A stretch of 64,000 bases of DNA from Pseudomonas fildesensis (lineage in GTDB: Bacteria > Pseudomonadota > Gammaproteobacteria > Pseudomonadales > Pseudomonadaceae). Both the position numbers and the translations under genes were made by a program. This document shows, one piece after another, positions 9,625 through 64,000 of the stretch. The stretch's first letter is position 1; every line of letters begins with the position of its first letter. The notes beneath the pieces were generated by a model. That model searched no databases, was not told the DNA's origin, and saw nothing but the letters and a program-made list of their open reading frames with translations. The stretch lies in assembly GCF_001050345.1 (NCBI RefSeq), contig NZ_LFMW01000013.1, forward strand, positions 1 through 64,000. The letters run 5' to 3'.

Positions 9625-9986
9625 ACAACCAACTGAAACATAAAGGCTACATTGGCTCTATCGAGGCCAGCATCGAAGACGACTGCCTGTTCGGCAAAAT
9701 CCTGTTCATCAAGGCATTGGTCAGCTACGAGGGGAAAACCGTCGCCGAACTCGACGCGGCCTTCCGCGAGGCGGTGGACGACTATCTCGCGACTTGCCAG
9801 AGCCTGGGTCAAACACCGGAAAAACCTTGCAAAGGTTCTTTTAATGTCCGGGTCGGGCATGACTTGCATCTGGCTGCAGCCCTGGCGGCGACCCGTAAAA
9901 AAGTGACGCTCAATGACCTGACTCGCCAGGCGCTGAATGAGTTTTTGCAGCATCACTGCCCAGACCCAAGCCCGGCGATTGGCTGA
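9621..9986 (+). CDS. hicB: HicB-family antitoxin
   Basis: A 121-residue protein starting at the GTG that overlaps the hicA stop. The N-terminal half (residues 5-70) is the degenerate RNase H-like HicB domain (YKG-like YIGSIE, FIKALVSYEGKTVAEL, FREAVDDYL). The C-terminal third (about 85-113) is a ribbon-helix-helix type DNA-binding segment (GSFNVRVGHDLHLAAALAA, then LNDLTRQALNEFL). It should bind and neutralise HicA and repress the shared promoter. The gene ends directly against the convergent MFS gene, with no spacer. HicB family assignment is firm; activity is inferred. Confidence 0.9.
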   Translation: MNNQLKHKGYIGSIEASIEDDCLFGKILFIKALVSYEGKTVAELDAAFREAVDDYLATCQSLGQTPEKPCKGSFNVRVGHDLHLAAALAATRKKVTLNDLTRQALNEFLQHHCPDPSPAIG

Positions 9987-11159
9987 CTAGCCTAACCGCC
10001 GGTATCCCAGCACCGCCGACCCCAACACCACACTCCCCGCCGCCAGCGCCACCCAAAACCCGCTGGCCGCGCCAAAGTGATCGATCATCCAACCGGAGCT
10101 GGCGGCGCCGATGGCCACACCGATGCTCAAGCCGGTGATCAGCCAGGTCATGCCTTCGGTCAGGCGGCTCGGCGGGACGATCTGCTCCACCAGGGCCATC
10201 GACACGATCAACGTCGGTGCGAAGAACAGGCCGGAGATAAAGATCGCCGCCGCCAGCCCGGGAATATGGGTCACCAGCAGCAGCGGCAAGGTGGTCAATG
10301 CCGTGGCCACGCCGCAGAACAGAAACTGCCTGGGCAACGGCGCCTTGAGCTTGAGCGTGCCAAATGCCAGACCCGCCAGGCACGAACCGATGGCGTACAC
10401 CGACAGCACAATGCTCGCCGCCGCCGGTTGGCCCTGGTGCTGGGCAAAGGCCACGCTGACCACATCCACCACGCCGACGATCACGCCCATGGCCAGCAGC
10501 AGAATCATCAGGATCAGCACCGAAGGCGACGCGATCAGCCAGCGGCCGTGATGGTCATGGTGTTCATGCACCGGTGGTTCGGTTTCGCGTTGCAACACAA
10601 AGAGGGTGACCCCCACTGCCAGCAACAGCGCGGCCAACAAAGGCCCGGCCTCCGGGAACAACACTACGCTCAGGCCGACTGAAATCGGCGGGCCGATGAT
10701 AAAGCACACCTCGTCCAGCACCGATTCCAGGGCAAACGCGGTTTGCAGCTTGGGCTGGCCGCGGTACAACTCGGTCCAGCGCGCCCGGACCATGGCCGAC
10801 ATACTCGGCATGCAACCGGCCAGGGCGGCGAACAGGAACAACGTCCAGTTCGGCGCCTGCAAACGGGTGCACAGCAGCAACATCAACAACGCCCCGCCAC
10901 CGATCAGCGCGGCGATCGGCAGCACCCGGCCCTGGCTGTGCCGGTCAACCAGCCGTGATACCTGCGGCGCACAAAACGCCGTGGCCAGGGCAAACACCGC
11001 CGCTACCGAACCGGCCAGGCCGTAGCCGCCATGCACCTGCGAGAGCATGGTGATCAGGCCGATACCGGTCATGGAGATCGGCATGCGTGCAAGCATGCCT
11101 GCCAATACAAAAGCCCGGGCGCCCGGGGCATGGAATAACTCGGCGTAGGGGTTTGCCAT
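9987..11159 (-). CDS. MFS transporter (12-TM exporter type)
   Basis: A 390-residue membrane protein of about the usual MFS length, with twelve predicted hydrophobic segments. The motif-A-like loop between TM2 and TM3 reads SRLVDRHSQGRVLP. A histidine-rich cytoplasmic loop (HEHHDHHGR, around residue 195) separates the two six-helix halves. The substrate cannot be read from sequence; small-molecule or drug efflux is the usual guess for this type. The start ATG at 11159 lies 28 nt from the MATE gene's stop on the same strand, so the two exporters are probably co-transcribed (MATE first). Confidence 0.85.
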   Translation of the reverse strand: MANPYAELFHAPGARAFVLAGMLARMPISMTGIGLITMLSQVHGGYGLAGSVAAVFALATAFCAPQVSRLVDRHSQGRVLPIAALIGGGALLMLLLCTRLQAPNWTLFLFAALAGCMPSMSAMVRARWTELYRGQPKLQTAFALESVLDEVCFIIGPPISVGLSVVLFPEAGPLLAALLLAVGVTLFVLQRETEPPVHEHHDHHGRWLIASPSVLILMILLLAMGVIVGVVDVVSVAFAQHQGQPAAASIVLSVYAIGSCLAGLAFGTLKLKAPLPRQFLFCGVATALTTLPLLLVTHIPGLAAAIFISGLFFAPTLIVSMALVEQIVPPSRLTEGMTWLITGLSIGVAIGAASSGWMIDHFGAASGFWVALAAGSVVLGSAVLGYRRLG

Positions 11160-52787: not shown

Positions 52788-52923
52788 GTGGCGAGGGAGG
52801 CCTCCCAGCCTGCAAACAGGCTGCGCTGTCGCGCAGAGAACCTGCCGATAAATCGGAAAATTATTTATGTTTAAAATCAATAAGATAAATTTTGCTCTAT
52901 AAGAGCTTGCTCCCTCACCACAG
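52788..52923. repeat. Degenerate REPIN next to the array
   Basis: A left arm beginning GTGGCGAGGGAGG at 52788 and a right arm AGAGCTTGCTCCCTCACCAC ending near 52921 belong to the same class as the adjacent array. The arms have diverged and the interior is replaced by an AT-rich stretch (52855-52900). Confidence 0.65.
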
Positions 52924-52964
52924 GGATGGTGTTTGGCCTAATTGTGGCTGACACACTGCTTATT

Positions 52965-53640
52965 GTGGCGAGGGAGCTTGCTCCCGCTGGGCTGCGCAGC
53001 GGCCCCAGTCGGATGAAACAGGTAATTCAGGCAGACCGCGTTGGCAGGCTTTGGGGCCGCTTCGCGGCCCAACGGGAGCAAGCTCCCTCGCCACAGGGAC
53101 GGTGTCTGGCCTTAATTGTGGCTGACACACTGCTTATTATGGCGAGGGAGCTTGCTCCCGTTGGGGTGCGAAGCAGCCCCAGTCGCATGAACGAAGATAT
53201 TTCAGGCAGACCGCGTTGGCAGGCTTTGGGGCCGCTTCGCGGCCCAACGGGAGCAAGCTCCCTCGCCACAGGGACGGTGTCTGGCCTTAATTGTGGCTGA
53301 CACACTGCTTATTGTGGCGAGGGAGCTTGCTCCCGTTGGGCTGCGCAGCGGCCCCAGTCGGATGAACGAAGATATTTCAGGCAGACCGCGTTGGCAGGCT
53401 TTGGGGCCGCTGCGCGGCCCAACGGGAGCAAGCTCCCTCGCCACAGGGACGGTGTTTGGCCTAATTGTGGCTGACACACTGCTTATTGTGGCGAGGGAGC
53501 TTGCTCCCGTTGGGCTGCGCAGCGGCCCCAGTCGGATGAACGAGGTAATTCAGGCAGACCGAGTAGGCAGGCTTTGGGGCCGCTTCGCGGCCCAACGGGA
53601 GCAAGCTCCCTCGCCACAGGGACGGTGTCTGGCCTTAAAT
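52965..53640. repeat. Tandem array of four ~174-bp REPIN units
   Basis: Units start at 52965, 53139, 53314 and 53488 (spacing 174, 175, 174). Each holds an inverted REP pair (GTGGCGAGGGAGCTTGCTCC outward, with a second GC-rich palindrome inside) of about 133 bp, then a conserved non-palindromic linker containing TTGTGGCTGACACACTGCTT. Copies are almost identical. Reading frames run across it on both strands but reflect the palindromes, not genes. Confidence 0.92.
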
Positions 53641-56869: not shown

Positions 56870-57301
56870 TTGAACACTGACGAAAAAATGACCGGGGACT
56901 TGTTCGAGGTGGATAAGCGCCTGTCACTCAAGCCCGTGGTGGACTTCAACACCTACCTGCGCAGCGCGTTCGGCGACGGCCCTTGCACGTGTGTGCGTTG
57001 CACGGCCAGTGGCGGGGATGAAACCGGCTATGCGTTTCAGCACACTTTCAATTTTGACGGCAAACCCACCCACCGCCGCTTCGCGTCCACGGCGGGCAGT
57101 GATGTGCTGTTGATGCTCAAGAAAGCATGGTTGTCCTACACCAAGGCCGAACTTACCGGCGCGGGTAACCTGGCAATAGATGGGGTGAAGGACTTTGTCG
57201 AACCGCAGTTACACAAACGCTTATTGCCGCTTTTTTTGGCCAGTGGGTTGGTCAAGGAAGTTGATGGAGAACTGCGGTTATTACCACAGTCGGCAGCCTG
57301 A
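56870..57301 (+). CDS. Hypothetical protein with a CxCVRC motif
   Basis: A 143-residue protein from TTG 56870, chosen because AGGA lies 8 nt upstream; a TTG at 56834 is an unsupported alternative. It is soluble and has a cysteine cluster PCTCVRC near residues 37-43, which could bind metal, and no other recognisable motif. It lies 145 nt upstream of the large helicase on the same strand and may share its transcript. Function unknown. Confidence 0.6.
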   Translation: MNTDEKMTGDLFEVDKRLSLKPVVDFNTYLRSAFGDGPCTCVRCTASGGDETGYAFQHTFNFDGKPTHRRFASTAGSDVLLMLKKAWLSYTKAELTGAGNLAIDGVKDFVEPQLHKRLLPLFLASGLVKEVDGELRLLPQSAA

Positions 57302-57446
57302 TAAGGCTCGGACTCTGCGAGAAAACTGACCTCCGCTTGGATGGCAGGCAATTTCCAGGTATGTGAGTCGCGTTGTACCATCAGAAAGTCACGAGCGTGC
57401 CGCCGAACAGGGACAATCCGGCGTCAACCACAAAGGAATGAAGTTG

Positions 57447-60400
57447 ATGAATCAAGAATGCATCACCCGCTACTGGCACGCCGTTGAGCTGTTACAACCT
57501 CAATCAGCCCCGAAAATAGAAAAGCGCGACGGCCTGTTTTCGTCGTTTTTCCACGACGTCAACGCTGCTCGAACGGTGATGCCTTGGTCTGAAGAGAGTC
57601 CCGTCGCAGGCCAGCAGATCCCAGGCAAGAGGGTCTGGAGCCATACCCTATTCGCCCACCTGTACGACAGCCAGGCAGTGGCCGATGAGCTCAAGCAGCT
57701 TTACGGCGCCGACCAAGGCTACAAAGAACATCCAAAACGCCGAGAGTCTGCACTCTTTGCTCTGAAATTCACGGCTCAGGGCATGATGGTCCAAGACAGC
57801 CTGGTGCTCTCCAGCGAAGCCTGGTTCCTTGGCCGCGCGCTGAGCAAAAGGGATTGGACCCGAGGTTTCGACGACGACCAGAATTGCTTGCGTGAAGACA
57901 TTAAGGTGCTGATGGGTGGCCAGGTCGACGCGGACGCGCTGCTCCAGTTGACGGTCAACATTCGCCAGTTCCTTGGCCTGGATAATTTTTTCCCAGAGCC
58001 CGCTCAACTTCGCCACCGGTGGCGCTCCACCCCCGTCAAGGAAAAGAAACCGGAGCAGGAAGACGACCCGCTCAACAGTTTCCTGCTCTCAGACCTCGCC
58101 GACGTGTCAGACAGCTTGCGAAAAGGCCTGTCGAGCAAGGCGCTTGATCAATACCTTGCGCGGCACGCCCCGGACAATCGCCTGCACATCGATGATGACG
58201 ATGCCAGCTTGTCAGTCATCGAGCGATTGACGCCCAAGCATTACGCATCGGGATGCTGGCCTGCGGAACACCATCTTGGGCTGGTGCATTCTCAGCAACT
58301 GGCAGTGAACACCATCATGCGCACGCTGGGCGATGGCGAGGGCATACTCGGTATCAACGGCCCGCCCGGTACTGGCAAGACCACCTTGCTACGGGATCTT
58401 ATAGCCGCCGTGGTCACTCAGCGAGCCGATAAACTCGCCAGCCTGCCTCGCGCCTCTGCAGCGTTCATCGACGATGTACCGGAAAAGGCCGGCGACGGTA
58501 ACGATGCCCAAAAAATCCATAAGCTCAACCCTGCCCTGCTCGGTTTTGAAATAGTCATTGCGTCTTCGAATAACGGGGCTGTTGAAAACGTCACTCTGGA
58601 GCTGCCCCAACGAGACAAGGTCGACCCAAGCTGGCTGCCGGAAGCCGACTACTTTAGCGAACTGGGCGAATTGGTCAGTGGTAAACCCGCCTGGGGCTTG
58701 ATTTCAGCAGCGCTGGGCAGCAAAACCCGGCGTAATGCGTTCATCAGCCGATATTTCTACGGGAAATCACCCGAAAAGCCCAAGGCCGGCAGCACGCTCG
58801 ATGACCACAACGATTGGATGACGGCTATGGACGCCGAAGCACTTGAGGATCAACAGGAGCCCAACGAATCTGAATCGGGCGACCTGCCTGATGACGCCGA
58901 AGAACCGGGACCTCAAGGCTTTCTGGGCTGGCTGAAAATTCAAGTCGATGTCACGCGGACCACCGCTCAACGCCTGCAAACCTGGAAGCAGGCGGTCGCC
59001 GCCTATAACGCGGCGAAGTCACATGCCGAACAACTGAGTGCCGACGCCCTGCGCATCAATGCGCATATTCAGGCCCTGAATGATCTACGCCATCAGGTTA
59101 CTGAGCAGACCGACACGCTCAAGCAGTTGAGCGGCAAAATCAAAGACGTCGATGGGCGACTCGCACACCTTGACGAGGTCGAATTCAAACCCGCTGAGGA
59201 GGCTCTTCAACAGTGCCTGCGCGAACTGCAATCACACCAGCAGGACACGCCAGGCTTCTTTGCCAATTTGTTTAGCCTGTGGGGAGCGCAACGCAGCTGG
59301 AACACCGTAGGCCGCCTTATCAACGCGAGGCGTTCAGTCGCGCAAGAGGGCTTTGAACGCGTCAAGCGCAGTACGCTTCGCCAAGCAGCCGAACGCAAAC
59401 TGCTTGAGGGCCTGTATAGCGAAGCCAACGCAACGCTGGTGCACCTGCAGTCACGTCAGCGCCAGCACGGCGAACACATCACTGCCCTGGCACAGGCCTG
59501 CAAAGCCGACCATTTGTTGGCCTGGCTCAAGCACGGCATCATCGGACGCGGTGAGGCCATAGAGCTTGTTGAGCCTTGGGCGATTGCTGGGTGGCGACAG
59601 GCACGGGCACGCGTTTTCATCCAGGCACTCAAGCTACATCAATGCTTGTTCGAACTCGAAGCCAAGCGTATTCGCACCAACCTGTTTTTCATTAACAGCG
59701 TACTGCAAGGGGGCCGTTTCCGTGGCCTCTCCCGCGATGCAATCCGCTCTGGCTGGGCGTCATTGTTCATGCTTGTTCCTGTTTTGAGCAGCACTTTCGC
59801 GTCGTTTGCGCGCTCATTCGGCTCATTGGGTGTAGGCGAAATCGGCTGGCTACTGGTGGATGAAGCAGGCCAGGCCACACCGCAGGCAGCAGTGGGCGCA
59901 CTGTGGCGTGCTCGGCGCGCGGTATTGGTGGGAGACCCTTTGCAACTCAAGCCTATCGTCACCGTATCGGATGCCGTACTGGAACATATGCGCACACGCT
60001 ATGGGGTCGATGAGCACTGGCTCCCAAGCCGCCAATCCGCGCAAACTCTGGCCGACGAAGCCACGCAATGGGGTCGCATGATGGGCCCGGTGGATGATAA
60101 GCGATGGGTCGGCTTGCCCCTGGTGGTCCACCGTCGCTGTGATAGACCGATGTACGCGCTAGCCAACCGGATCGCCTATGACGGGGTGATGGTATTTGGC
60201 ACTCGCCCCCCTCCCCCGGAAAAAGAAACCACCGCCAGCTTGCCTACAGGTTGGGTTCAGGCCAGCGGCGGGTCCACCGGGAATTGGGTTCCCGCAGAAG
60301 GAGATGCGCTGATGCGCTTGCTGACAAGCCTTCGTGCAGACGGCGTAAGCATCTCCGACATATCTGTTATTACGCCTTTCCAAGCAGTGCGGGACCGCCT

Positions 60401-60683
60401 CAGGGATCTGCTTCCACGCAAGATGGTCTACGGCACCATCCATACGATGCAGGGCAAAGAGGCAGCGGTGGTCATCATGGTGCTGGGTGGCAACAGTGAA
60501 AACCCGGCTGCGCGTGATTGGGTGGTCAGCGAGCCCAATCTACTGAACGTTGCAGCAACACGAGCCAAGCGACGCTTCTATGTGATCGGTGATCGCAACG
60601 ACTGGCGCGACCGCTTGTTGTTCTGTGACGTAATGGACTTACTGGTACCACAGGTACTGACGGAGCTGGCTCCGTTCAAATGA
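57447..60683 (+). CDS. Large Upf1/DNA2-like SF1 helicase
   Basis: A 1078-residue superfamily 1 helicase. Start ATG 57447 has AAGGA 9 nt upstream. The first 290 residues match nothing I know. Walker A GPPGTGKT lies at 305-312, motif II VDEAGQA at about 804, motif III VGDPLQLKP at about 829, TIHTMQGKE at about 996 and motif VI NVAATRAKRR at about 1034. Between motif I and II is a 490-residue insert with long charged helices (about 520-685, coiled-coil-like). It is probably a 5'-3' helicase or translocase on nucleic acid. Helicases of this COG1112 kind occur in several antiphage systems, so a defence role is possible but unproven. The only same-strand neighbours are the small unknown gene and an AraC remnant. 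Confidence 0.9.
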   Translation: MNQECITRYWHAVELLQPQSAPKIEKRDGLFSSFFHDVNAARTVMPWSEESPVAGQQIPGKRVWSHTLFAHLYDSQAVADELKQLYGADQGYKEHPKRRESALFALKFTAQGMMVQDSLVLSSEAWFLGRALSKRDWTRGFDDDQNCLREDIKVLMGGQVDADALLQLTVNIRQFLGLDNFFPEPAQLRHRWRSTPVKEKKPEQEDDPLNSFLLSDLADVSDSLRKGLSSKALDQYLARHAPDNRLHIDDDDASLSVIERLTPKHYASGCWPAEHHLGLVHSQQLAVNTIMRTLGDGEGILGINGPPGTGKTTLLRDLIAAVVTQRADKLASLPRASAAFIDDVPEKAGDGNDAQKIHKLNPALLGFEIVIASSNNGAVENVTLELPQRDKVDPSWLPEADYFSELGELVSGKPAWGLISAALGSKTRRNAFISRYFYGKSPEKPKAGSTLDDHNDWMTAMDAEALEDQQEPNESESGDLPDDAEEPGPQGFLGWLKIQVDVTRTTAQRLQTWKQAVAAYNAAKSHAEQLSADALRINAHIQALNDLRHQVTEQTDTLKQLSGKIKDVDGRLAHLDEVEFKPAEEALQQCLRELQSHQQDTPGFFANLFSLWGAQRSWNTVGRLINARRSVAQEGFERVKRSTLRQAAERKLLEGLYSEANATLVHLQSRQRQHGEHITALAQACKADHLLAWLKHGIIGRGEAIELVEPWAIAGWRQARARVFIQALKLHQCLFELEAKRIRTNLFFINSVLQGGRFRGLSRDAIRSGWASLFMLVPVLSSTFASFARSFGSLGVGEIGWLLVDEAGQATPQAAVGALWRARRAVLVGDPLQLKPIVTVSDAVLEHMRTRYGVDEHWLPSRQSAQTLADEATQWGRMMGPVDDKRWVGLPLVVHRRCDRPMYALANRIAYDGVMVFGTRPPPPEKETTASLPTGWVQASGGSTGNWVPAEGDALMRLLTSLRADGVSISDISVITPFQAVRDRLRDLLPRKMVYGTIHTMQGKEAAVVIMVLGGNSENPAARDWVVSEPNLLNVAATRAKRRFYVIGDRNDWRDRLLFCDVMDLLVPQVLTELAPFK

Positions 60684-60761
60684 CGGTTGACGCAGCCATT
60701 ACTGCTTCAATCCTGCCTGTTTCTGCTTTTGGCTTGCGCAGCGTTCGTGGGAAGGGACAGC

Positions 60762-60941
60762 ATGGCCACTATGAACGCTCAATTGATCGAACTGCGCGCC
60801 TTGGCCACCAAGGCTGAAAACCACAGGACCGAGACCGGCATCCCTCGGGAGGCAATGGTGCAGATACGGCGCGGGTTCTGGACGAAACGAAAGATCAGCA
60901 CCGGTAAATCCAAAGAGTTGCAGATCTGCTGTTCGCGTTGA
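60762..60941 (+). pseudogene. N-terminal fragment of an AraC-family regulator
   Basis: The 59-codon frame from ATG 60762 begins NAQLIELRALATKAENHRTE, then GIPREAMVQ. That looks like the start of the AraC_N sensor domain in Pseudomonas regulators (typically xTxIPRLxLxR). It then loses similarity and stops at 60941, 15 nt before the permease start. It is probably a decayed regulator; a genuine small gene cannot be excluded. Confidence 0.4.
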
Positions 60942-62308: not shown

Positions 62309-64000
62309 TTACTTACGCGCCGCCTCCCACGACTTGAGCAGGTCGTTGTAGTTCACGGTCTCCCCTTTCGGTTTCTCGTTGGCCAGTTTCGGCTTCGGTG
62401 CGCCCGGCTGGTCGAACCAGTACTGCGCGTCACGCTCGGGGTTCATTTTCGGCCCACACACCGGCTGCACCTTGGAACGCTCCAGGCGCGTCATGATCGC
62501 GTCCTGGTCCTTGGCCAAGCCGTCGAGGGCCTGTTGTGGAGTTTTCTCGCCGCTGGCGGCTTCCGAGATGTGGCTCCACCACAACTGCGCCAGGCGCGGG
62601 TAGTCCGGCACGTTGGTGCCGGTCGGGGTCCACTCCACCCGGGCCGGGCTGCGGTAGAACTCCACCAGGCCACCGAGTTTCGGCGCCAGGTCGGTCATGG
62701 CCTGGGAGTTGATGTCCGATTCACGAATCGGCGTCAGGCCAACGATGGTTTTCTTCAGCGAAACGGTTTTCGAGGTCACGAACTGCGCGTACAGCCAGGC
62801 CGCGAGTTTCTGCTTCTCAGGCGTCGACTTGAGGAAAGTCCAGGAACCCACGTCCTGATAACCCTTCTTCATACCCTTTTCCCAATAAGGCCCGACTGGC
62901 GAGGGCGCCATCCGCCATTTCGGTGTGCCGTCGGCGTTCACCACCGGCAGGCCGGGTTTGGTCATGTCGGCGGTAAACGCGGTATACCAGAAGATCTGCT
63001 GGGCGATGTTGCCCTGGGACGGCACCGGGCCGGATTCGGAGAAGGTCATGCCCGCCGCTTCCGGTGGCGCGTAGGCTCTCATCCAGTCCACGTATTTCTG
63101 CGTGGCATACACCGCCGCTGGCCCGTTGGTGTCGCCACCACGGGTCACGCTGGAGCCCACCGGGTGGCAGTCCTCCACGCGAATGCCCCACTCGTCCACC
63201 GGCAAACCGTTGGGCAAACCCTTGTCGCCACCGCCGGCCATGGAGAACCAGGCATCGGTGAAACGCCAGCCCAGGGACGGGTCTTTCTTGCCGTAGTCCA
63301 TGTGACCGTAGACGCGCTTGCCATCGATCTCCTTGACGTCTTCGCTGAAAAACTTGGCGATGTCTTCATAGGCGGACCAGTTCACCGGCACGCCCAACTC
63401 ATAGCCGTATTTTTCCTTGAACTTGGCTTTAAGGTCGGCGCGTTCAAACCAGTCGGCGCGGAACCAATAGAGGTTGGCGAACTGCTGGTCGGGCAGCTGG
63501 TAGATCTTGCCGTCCGGCGCGGTGGTGAAGGAGATGCCGATAAAGTCCTTGATATCGAGGGTCGGCGAGGTGAAGTTCTTGCCTTCGTTGGCCATCAGGT
63601 CGGTGATGGATTCGGTCTTGCCGTAGCGAAAGTGCGTACCGATCAGGTCCGAGTCGTTGACCCAGCCGTCATAGATATTCTTGTCGGACTGCATCTGGGT
63701 TTGCAGCTTCTCCACCACGTCGCCTTCCTGCAGCAGGTCGTGGGTCAGCTTGATCCCGGTGATTTCACTGAAGGCCTTGGCCAGCACCTTGGATTCGTAC
63801 TCGTGGGTGGTGAGGGTTTCCGACACCACGTTGATCTTCATCCCACGGAACGGTTCTGCCGCCTTGATAAACCACTTCAGTTCCTCAAGCTGCTGGTCAG
63901 CCGTGAGAGTGGACGGTTTGAACTCGCTGCCGATCCATTTTTTCGCCGCATCTTCATACGCATCGGCCCAGGCCGTGGCGCTCAAACCGCTGAGGGCCAG
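62309..64000 (-). CDS. Large family-1 extracellular solute-binding protein, C-terminal part
   Basis: The frame is open at base 64000, where residues LALSGLSATAWADA are the end of a signal peptide, so about 560 residues of mature protein are visible and only the start is missing. The length (about 580) and the stretches SETLTTHEYESKVLAKAFSE, DLIGTHFRYGKTESITDL, RADWFERADLKAKF and GDTNGPAAVYATQKYVDWM resemble the glycerol-type ABC binder GlpV rather than the usual 400-residue sugar binders. That identification is from memory. The transporter genes would lie beyond the window. Confidence 0.85.
   Translation of the reverse strand: MALSGLSATAWADAYEDAAKKWIGSEFKPSTLTADQQLEELKWFIKAAEPFRGMKINVVSETLTTHEYESKVLAKAFSEITGIKLTHDLLQEGDVVEKLQTQMQSDKNIYDGWVNDSDLIGTHFRYGKTESITDLMANEGKNFTSPTLDIKDFIGISFTTAPDGKIYQLPDQQFANLYWFRADWFERADLKAKFKEKYGYELGVPVNWSAYEDIAKFFSEDVKEIDGKRVYGHMDYGKKDPSLGWRFTDAWFSMAGGGDKGLPNGLPVDEWGIRVEDCHPVGSSVTRGGDTNGPAAVYATQKYVDWMRAYAPPEAAGMTFSESGPVPSQGNIAQQIFWYTAFTADMTKPGLPVVNADGTPKWRMAPSPVGPYWEKGMKKGYQDVGSWTFLKSTPEKQKLAAWLYAQFVTSKTVSLKKTIVGLTPIRESDINSQAMTDLAPKLGGLVEFYRSPARVEWTPTGTNVPDYPRLAQLWWSHISEAASGEKTPQQALDGLAKDQDAIMTRLERSKVQPVCGPKMNPERDAQYWFDQPGAPKPKLANEKPKGETVNYNDLLKSWEAARK

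What the first reader, a model, noticed from the sequence alone, without database searches (positions are those of the whole stretch)
56870..60941. Upf1/DNA2-like helicase with unknown N-terminus and a small Cys-cluster partner
The 1078-residue helicase has an unfamiliar 290-residue N-terminus and a long coiled-coil insert. It follows a small protein with CxCVRC and is flanked by gene debris, the look of an exchangeable locus. COG1112-type helicases are parts of antiphage systems, so this pair is a candidate defence module.
Basis: inference. Interest (0 to 1): 0.6.

Follow-up and report, generated by a model that had tools for sequence, protein, structure and literature searches.

The report
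Solitary mobile Upf1-like helicase gene
A large, intact, frequently gained-and-lost bacterial helicase gene, related to helicases of known antiphage systems but without their nuclease part, sits beside an unrelated small resident gene; it is a plausible single-gene defence candidate, not a proven one.

Summary
57447-60683 encodes an intact 1078-residue UPF1/DNA2-like SF1 helicase with a family-specific N-terminus and a coiled-coil arm (537-684). 56888-57301 encodes a 137-residue protein with CTCVRC. The proposed pair is not supported. The small gene is a clade-level resident of Pseudomonas (165 of 398 genomes). The helicase is patchy (19 of 398 at 54% identity or more) and beside the small gene in 4 of those 19. 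Their raw co-occurrence (p 2e-5) disappears on an rpoB tree. The site is exchangeable: from the small gene to the next conserved gene is 79 bp to 12.2 kb in the 31 of 40 genomes where both were found, but it is not clearly a defence island. The helicase moves between genera, lies on plasmids and ICE-like elements, and in a few loci has CBASS, SIR2 or HNH defence genes nearby. Its core is homologous to Mokosh MkoC, but the C-terminal PLD nuclease is missing and the N-termini do not align. It also resembles CoCoNuT CnuH, without CnuE. Best reading: a stand-alone accessory helicase, probably anti-phage or anti-plasmid; inferred, not shown.

The parts
57447..60683 (+). Helicase, 1078 aa, UPF1/DNA2-like superfamily 1 (COG1112-type) with the SF1 motifs intact
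   Evidence: ORF; Pfam AAA_11 1.5e-15, AAA_12 4.9e-13; PADLOC MkoC 1.8e-62 over residues 278-1051; AlphaFold model pLDDT 83.7; VIA Z 18.8 to Ighmbp2, 17.9 to Upf1, 17.8 to Dna2
57447..58280 (+). Family-specific N-terminal region, residues 1-278 (folded part about 1-200, then a linker with conserved LNSFLL at 209)
   Evidence: No Pfam match; model of it alone pLDDT 80.4; best Foldseek PDB match E 0.53, VIA best Z 2.6, best BFVD match E 0.18; not alignable to MkoC (hhalign probability 0.2)
59055..59498 (+). Coiled-coil arm, residues 537-684, two long antiparallel helices inserted in the first RecA-like domain after Walker A
   Evidence: AlphaFold helices 537-599 and 613-684, block pLDDT 86-95; mean column conservation of 491-700 is 0.49 against 0.76-0.81 in the flanking motor parts
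56888..57301 (+). Small conserved resident gene, 137 aa, CxCxxC plus His; anchor of the variable site, not shown to be part of the helicase system
   Evidence: 165 of 398 Pseudomonas genomes; C33, C35, C38, H52 in 74 of 74 rows
60687..60941 (+). Remnant of the start of an AraC-family regulator gene; the stretch is also present in a helicase-less site of another genome
   Evidence: 78% identity over 59 residues (60687-60863) to an intact copy, which is AraC_N + HTH_18; blastn match from 60708 on in helicase-less L088
57302..62308 (.). Variable interval between the small gene and the conserved solute-binding protein gene at 62309 (name by eye); holds helicase, AraC remnant and a permease-like ORF here
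   Evidence: The same interval is 79-12227 bp in the 31 of 40 genomes in which both ends were found

Best explanation
The helicase is a stand-alone, horizontally mobile accessory gene of the UPF1/DNA2-like SF1 family. Most likely it protects the cell, or the mobile element that carries it, against phages or competing elements. Proposed mechanism: the SF1 motor loads on single-stranded RNA or ssDNA exposed by an invading element and translocates with ATP. The variable coiled-coil arm and the family-specific N-terminal domain supply target recognition and contacts with a host or invader complex. Interference comes from stripping or blocking replication or transcription complexes, or from handing the substrate to a host nuclease, because no nuclease domain is recognisable in the protein. 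Shown here: intact motor motifs, predicted architecture, patchy distribution, inter-genus transfer, homology to the MkoC core, lack of a PLD match, lack of a conserved neighbour. Inferred: nucleic-acid substrate, defence role, the roles of arm and N-terminus. The neighbouring CxCxxC gene is read as a bystander that anchors the insertion site.
For: MkoC homology over motor and arm (PADLOC 1.8e-62; hhalign 100%, E 1.2e-39, 662 columns). Patchy: 19 of 398 Pseudomonas genomes, 19 changes on the rpoB tree. Transfer: a Pseudomonas row inside the Xanthomonas clade, a Pantoea row inside Pseudomonas, Shewanella next to Vreelandella. Mobile carriers: three Pseudomonas plasmids with mobI and ParM genes nearby, two of them also with a Y-family polymerase gene, a Simplicispira plasmid typed conjugative, ICE-like loci with ParA/ParB-like neighbours. 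Defence neighbours in some loci: SIR2 PDC-S65 (L025), CBASS cyclase (L026, same cluster in L027), Ppl-like (L028), HNH PDC-M68A (L035). The commonest neighbour cluster is in only 7 of 39 loci. Helicase-less sites.
Against: No experiment. As far as the listing shows by eye, many Pseudomonas chromosomal copies lie among metabolic or housekeeping genes. The cargo of this site in 40 genomes looks mainly metabolic (Pfam, 25 of 90 families listed); PADLOC at 1e-10 gave, besides the helicase itself, HerA (one protein), PDC-S48 1.4e-30 (not traced), mad2, mad3, mad8 and DEDDh. There was no matched control for defence enrichment, and some PADLOC hits among neighbours look like housekeeping paralogues. 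No nuclease or other effector domain is recognisable.
Confidence: 0.5

Rival explanations
1. The helicase serves the mobile elements themselves (plasmid or ICE replication, transfer or repair), and the chromosomal copies, including this one, are left behind by such elements.
For: Copies lie near mobI and ParM genes on three Pseudomonas plasmids, near a MobH relaxase and beside a traG-type gene on a Klebsiella plasmid; ICE-like loci; 615 of 743 plasmid records with a match are predicted conjugative (548 of the 743 are Klebsiella, so they are not independent).
Against: Many chromosomal copies have an intact frame and, by eye, no transfer genes nearby; the motor is strongly conserved, so it is kept without an element. 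Defence genes are also common plasmid cargo, so location does not separate the two.
Confidence: 0.25
2. A two-gene defence module: the CxCxxC protein and the helicase work together.
For: Adjacent and co-oriented in four genomes of one helicase clade (145 bp apart in the window); in a fifth genome (G413) a ~40% relative of the helicase lies convergent, about 40 bp from the same small gene; raw co-occurrence 20 of 24 against 145 of 374, Fisher p 2e-5.
Against: The small gene is in 165 of 398 genomes, mostly without the helicase; 15 of 19 close carriers do not have the two adjacent; on the corrected rpoB tree the small gene does not differ in 12 or 13 of 14 independent pairs that differ in the helicase, and in the other 1 or 2 it goes the same way, too few to test; in G413 the genes are convergent, not an operon.
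Confidence: 0.07
3. An ordinary accessory helicase with a stress-related RNA or DNA processing role, gained and lost neutrally.
For: UPF1/DNA2-like helicases act in RNA surveillance and DNA repair in eukaryotes (established knowledge); several copies are broken into two or more frames (L061, which is G132, and L055, L059, L063, L064).
Against: Strong conservation of the motor, transfer between genera, and placement at several loci near known defence genes. Decay is also usual for defence genes.
Confidence: 0.18

Closest known systems
Mokosh type II, MkoC
   Same: COG1112/UPF1-like helicase core and helical arm homologous along 662 columns; single gene
   Different: No C-terminal PLD nuclease (MkoC has PLDc_2 at 1016-1141; no HxKx4D in P0002); N-termini not alignable; full-length MkoC in 11 of 298 Pseudomonas genomes scores 1043-1367 bits over the whole profile against 208 here
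CoCoNuT CnuH helicases (eLife RP94800, PMC11090510; passages read)
   Same: UPF1-like SF1 helicase with a large helical, coiled-coil insertion after Walker A
   Different: No CnuE-type gene downstream here and no conserved neighbour in 39 loci; Foldseek found no OB fold or toxin-like fold in the N-terminal model
Eukaryotic UPF1, IGHMBP2 and DNA2
   Same: Motor fold (VIA Z 17.8-18.8) and SF1 motifs
   Different: About 20% identity; long coiled-coil arm; N-terminal region without a detected match of its own

Membership tests
UPF1/DNA2-like superfamily 1 helicases | SF1 motor with intact Walker A, Walker B and motifs III, V, VI and UPF1-like fold | tested here: met
   Motifs located; Pfam AAA_11 and AAA_12 in 43 of 43 rows of the family alignment; VIA Z 17.8-18.8
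Mokosh type II (MkoC) | COG1112 helicase domain | tested here: met
   PADLOC MkoC 1.8e-62, hhalign 100%
Mokosh type II (MkoC) | C-terminal PLD nuclease in the same protein (definition: passages of PMC11672841, and PMC10952713 Table 1) | tested here: not met
   Match ends at profile position 945 of 1136; no PLD Pfam hit (none among the 25 of 29 families listed); no HxKx4D
Mokosh type II (MkoC) | Full-length match to the family profile | tested here: not met
   208 bits over 248-945 against 1043-1367 bits from position 1 to 1132-1135 in 11 full-length members
CoCoNuT type II/III (CnuH) | UPF1-like helicase with coiled-coil insertion after Walker A | tested here: met
   Walker A at 305-312; arm 537-684; definition from PMC11090510 passages
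CoCoNuT type II/III (CnuH) | Downstream CnuE (wHTH fused to an effector, generally a nuclease) | tested here: not met
   In the window the next ORF is an AraC remnant, then a permease-like ORF; no conserved neighbour in 39 loci
CoCoNuT type II/III (CnuH) | OB-fold/stalk domain attached to the motor, as in UPF1 | tested here: inconclusive
   Whole-model alignments start at residue 1, but the N-terminal model alone gives no significant match
CoCoNuT type II/III (CnuH) | Associated CnuB/CnuC (McrBC-like) genes | tested here: inconclusive
   None among the window neighbours by eye; neighbours of other loci were scanned with Pfam, but only 25 of 134 families were listed
Antiphage system in general | Experimental protection against phage | not testable with these tools
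   Needs plating assays

The most novel reading that the evidence does not exclude
A single-protein defence system without a nuclease: a UPF1-like motor with a coiled-coil arm and an N-terminal domain without a detected fold relative recognises and disables invading nucleic acid or its machinery, a branch of the MkoC/CnuH helicases that has dispensed with, or predates, the dedicated effector nuclease.
Probability: 0.3. Interest if true: 0.6.

Novelty: new variant of a known kind. Interest (0 to 1): 0.36.

Why it matters
UPF1-like helicases recur in antiphage systems (Mokosh, CoCoNuTs), where they are paired with a nuclease or other effector. A widespread orphan branch with an intact motor and no recognisable nuclease would show whether the helicase alone can interfere, or which host nuclease it borrows. 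It is one gene, so it can be tested directly in laboratory strains, and sister genomes with and without the gene at this site give natural comparisons.

Tried and rejected
Operon-partner reading: rejected on distribution, tree-corrected co-occurrence and loci. My first rpoB tree was wrong: a longest-frame rule seems to have taken antisense frames in 21 rows, which sat on a false branch of length 5; one search repeated it with the frame fixed by the RpoB start motif, and only that tree is used. The Fisher test (p 2e-5) does not depend on the tree, but is confounded by clade. That the 66 non-carriers lack the helicase, and which of them lack the small gene, is inferred from their not being listed as positive.

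Defence-island reading of this site: stretches after the small gene were collected in 40 genomes. 111 cluster representatives were scanned (PADLOC, Pfam; two 10-protein follow-ups): mostly metabolic as far as listed. One HerA gene was traced, to L170, about 12 kb from the small gene in a stretch where the second border gene was not found. PDC-S48, mad2, mad3, mad8 (beyond the HerA protein) and DEDDh hits were not traced. The ORF caller is crude and some representatives are antisense frames.

Phage-borne reading: 2 loci in the viral contigs (a pattern scan that finds close relatives) and 5 of 50,697 phage records with any match, 1 of them over at least 80% of the query at 29% identity; not a phage gene as a rule.

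N-terminus as a nuclease: no Pfam hit, no PLD motif, and the invariant columns of A4 (W126, F141, N210, S211, F212, L237) hold no catalytic set; no significant fold match in PDB or BFVD. This does not show a new fold. The N-terminal region was looked for in 244 genomes of the order: 5 matches, in frames of 997-1185 residues, so no other fusion was seen there.

Promoters and terminators: 0 promoter-like and 3 terminator-like sites, no more than shuffles; uninformative. tRNA genes lie in 7 of 40 loci scanned; no consistent site. Literature, PMC open library only: Mokosh, PLuB, COG1112 with phage and Upf1-like helicase with antiphage gave listings in which I saw no paper on this family; that does not show that none exists. 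Passages were read of PMC10952713, PMC12278908, PMC11672841, PMC11291487 and PMC11090510. The original Mokosh paper was not seen.
Full report
What is there. The window lies in a 6.3 Mb Pseudomonas genome (G000:C8; named relatives of the locus include P. rhodesiae). ORF 57447-60683 (+) encodes 1078 residues. Pfam finds AAA_11 and AAA_12; the SF1 motifs are intact. The small ORF 56888-57301 encodes 137 residues with CTCVRC and matches nothing in Pfam, PADLOC or NCBIfam. Downstream, 60687-60941 holds the beginning of an AraC-type regulator gene, then a permease-like ORF and a solute-binding protein ORF (names by eye).

Structure. AlphaFold on an alignment of 43 rows (A1) gave pLDDT 83.7 and pTM 0.80. 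The motor matches IGHMBP2 (Z 18.8, rmsd 8.6 over 466), UPF1 (17.9, 6.1 over 477) and DNA2 (17.8, 3.5 over 446). Two long helices, 537-599 and 613-684, form an arm inserted in the first RecA-like domain; 446-486 has pLDDT under 50. The N-terminal 278 residues folded alone gave pLDDT 80.4 and no significant match in PDB or BFVD. In the full-model comparison the alignments begin at residue 1, so a diverged UPF1-type stalk or barrel there is not excluded.

The pair. The small gene occurs in 165 of 398 Pseudomonas genomes; the helicase in 19 of 398 at 54% identity or more (one of them, G132, split in two frames), with 5 further genomes at 36-43%. The two are adjacent in 4 of the 19 (G000, G004, G319, G386; for carriers whose small-gene position was not printed, one search found no small gene within the flanks held). 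The window and the three public records with the small gene (L023, L024, L050; 3 of 60 loci) form one clade of the helicase tree with support 100. In G413 a ~40% relative lies convergent about 40 bp from the small gene, perhaps because the site is permissive. Carriers of any relative have the small gene in 20 of 24 cases against 145 of 374, but on an rpoB tree of 88 genomes the small gene changes 7 times and the helicase 19 times, and in 14 independent pairs that differ in the helicase the small gene does not differ in 12 or 13, going the same way in the other 1 or 2. The association is best explained by phylogeny. The rpoB sample was 24 carriers plus 66 non-carriers taken by a fixed step (two replaced because they were carriers); 2 non-carriers were lost (no rpoB match, or an incomplete one).

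The site. In 40 genomes with the small gene, the solute-binding gene that follows in the window was found in 31, 96-98% identical, at 79 to 12,227 bp; in 9 of 40 it was not found in the stretch fetched. L088/L143 (both G340) has the small gene, the AraC remnant stretch and the permease without the helicase. The site exchanges cargo, mostly metabolic as far as listed; in one genome a HerA-type gene lies about 12 kb on. It is a variable site, not clearly a defence island.

Distribution and mobility. 60 loci in public genomes encode relatives, from Pseudomonas, Xanthomonas, Shewanella, Burkholderiales, Pantoea and others, with distant ones in Campylobacter and Catenulispora. The tree puts a Pseudomonas row (KUIN-1) with Xanthomonas, a Pantoea row in a Pseudomonas clade, and Shewanella next to Vreelandella: transfer between genera. 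Relatives occur on 743 plasmid records, 105 of them over at least 80% of the query, 548 of the 743 in Klebsiella. On three Pseudomonas plasmids the gene is near mobI and ParM, on two of them also near a Y-family polymerase gene. Several loci are ICE-like, with ParA/ParB-like neighbours (the name Tn4371-like in my notes is recalled). Several copies are broken.

Neighbours. In 39 loci no neighbour cluster is shared by more than 7, so no conserved partner was seen. Of 148 neighbour representatives within 2.3 kb, 29 PADLOC families were hit at 1e-10 (25 listed, each by one member); some are likely housekeeping paralogues. Ten proteins picked by eye were scanned singly and 5 of 10 matched at 1e-8: SIR2 PDC-S65 (L025), CBASS cyclase (L026; same cluster in L027), Ppl-like (L028), HNH PDC-M68A (L035), and weakly a PLD-like protein (L033). 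There is no matched control, so this is suggestive only.

Relation to known systems. PADLOC gives MkoC at 1.8e-62 over 278-1051, profile 248-945 of 1136. Full-length MkoC proteins in 11 of 298 Pseudomonas genomes score 1043-1367 bits; close relatives of this protein score 148-222 bits for their best piece, over the motor only. Profile comparison with MkoC is certain over motor and arm and gives nothing for the N-terminus. MkoC ends in PLDc_2, the nuclease that defines Mokosh together with the helicase (passages of PMC11672841 and PMC10952713); this protein has no such match. CoCoNuT CnuH helicases also carry a coiled-coil insertion after Walker A and are typically followed by CnuE (passages of PMC11090510); no such gene follows here. 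So it may work like either, but is not filed as a member of either: an orphan branch.

Verdict. An ordinary kind of motor in an unusual, solitary setting; a reasonable defence candidate whose decisive test is experimental.

Noticed in passing
window 52909-53638: Tandem array, 175-bp unit, 4.2 copies, 94% matches; the unit contains inverted GGGAGC-type motifs (by eye).
   Followed up: no
L118 9854-13204 (Klebsiella plasmid pRJA166a): A ~32% relative of the helicase lies beside a traG-type gene; 548 Klebsiella plasmid records have some match to the helicase.
   Followed up: partly
L187 6332-9748 and 9788-10267 (G413): A ~40% helicase relative convergent about 40 bp from the small CxCxxC gene: an apparently separate arrival at the same anchor gene.
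   Followed up: partly
L069-L074, around 9856-10732: Six Burkholderiales records share a colinear stretch in which only the C-terminal fragment (residues 840-1073) of the helicase was found.
   Followed up: no
L033 7181-8443 (P. donghuensis): A separate PLD-like gene (PLDc_2 2.3e-11) lies about 1.6 kb from the helicase, recalling the Mokosh helicase plus PLD pairing.
   Followed up: partly
L026 6238-13273 (Shewanella sp. ANA-3): Patatin-like ORF (by eye), CBASS cyclase, an unassigned 585-aa ORF and the helicase follow one another on one strand; the patatin-like and cyclase clusters are also in Vreelandella L027.
   Followed up: partly
L119 4998-5402 (P. fluorescens plasmid): A 43% relative of the small CxCxxC protein follows ParA and a partitioning-determinant gene on a plasmid.
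   Followed up: no
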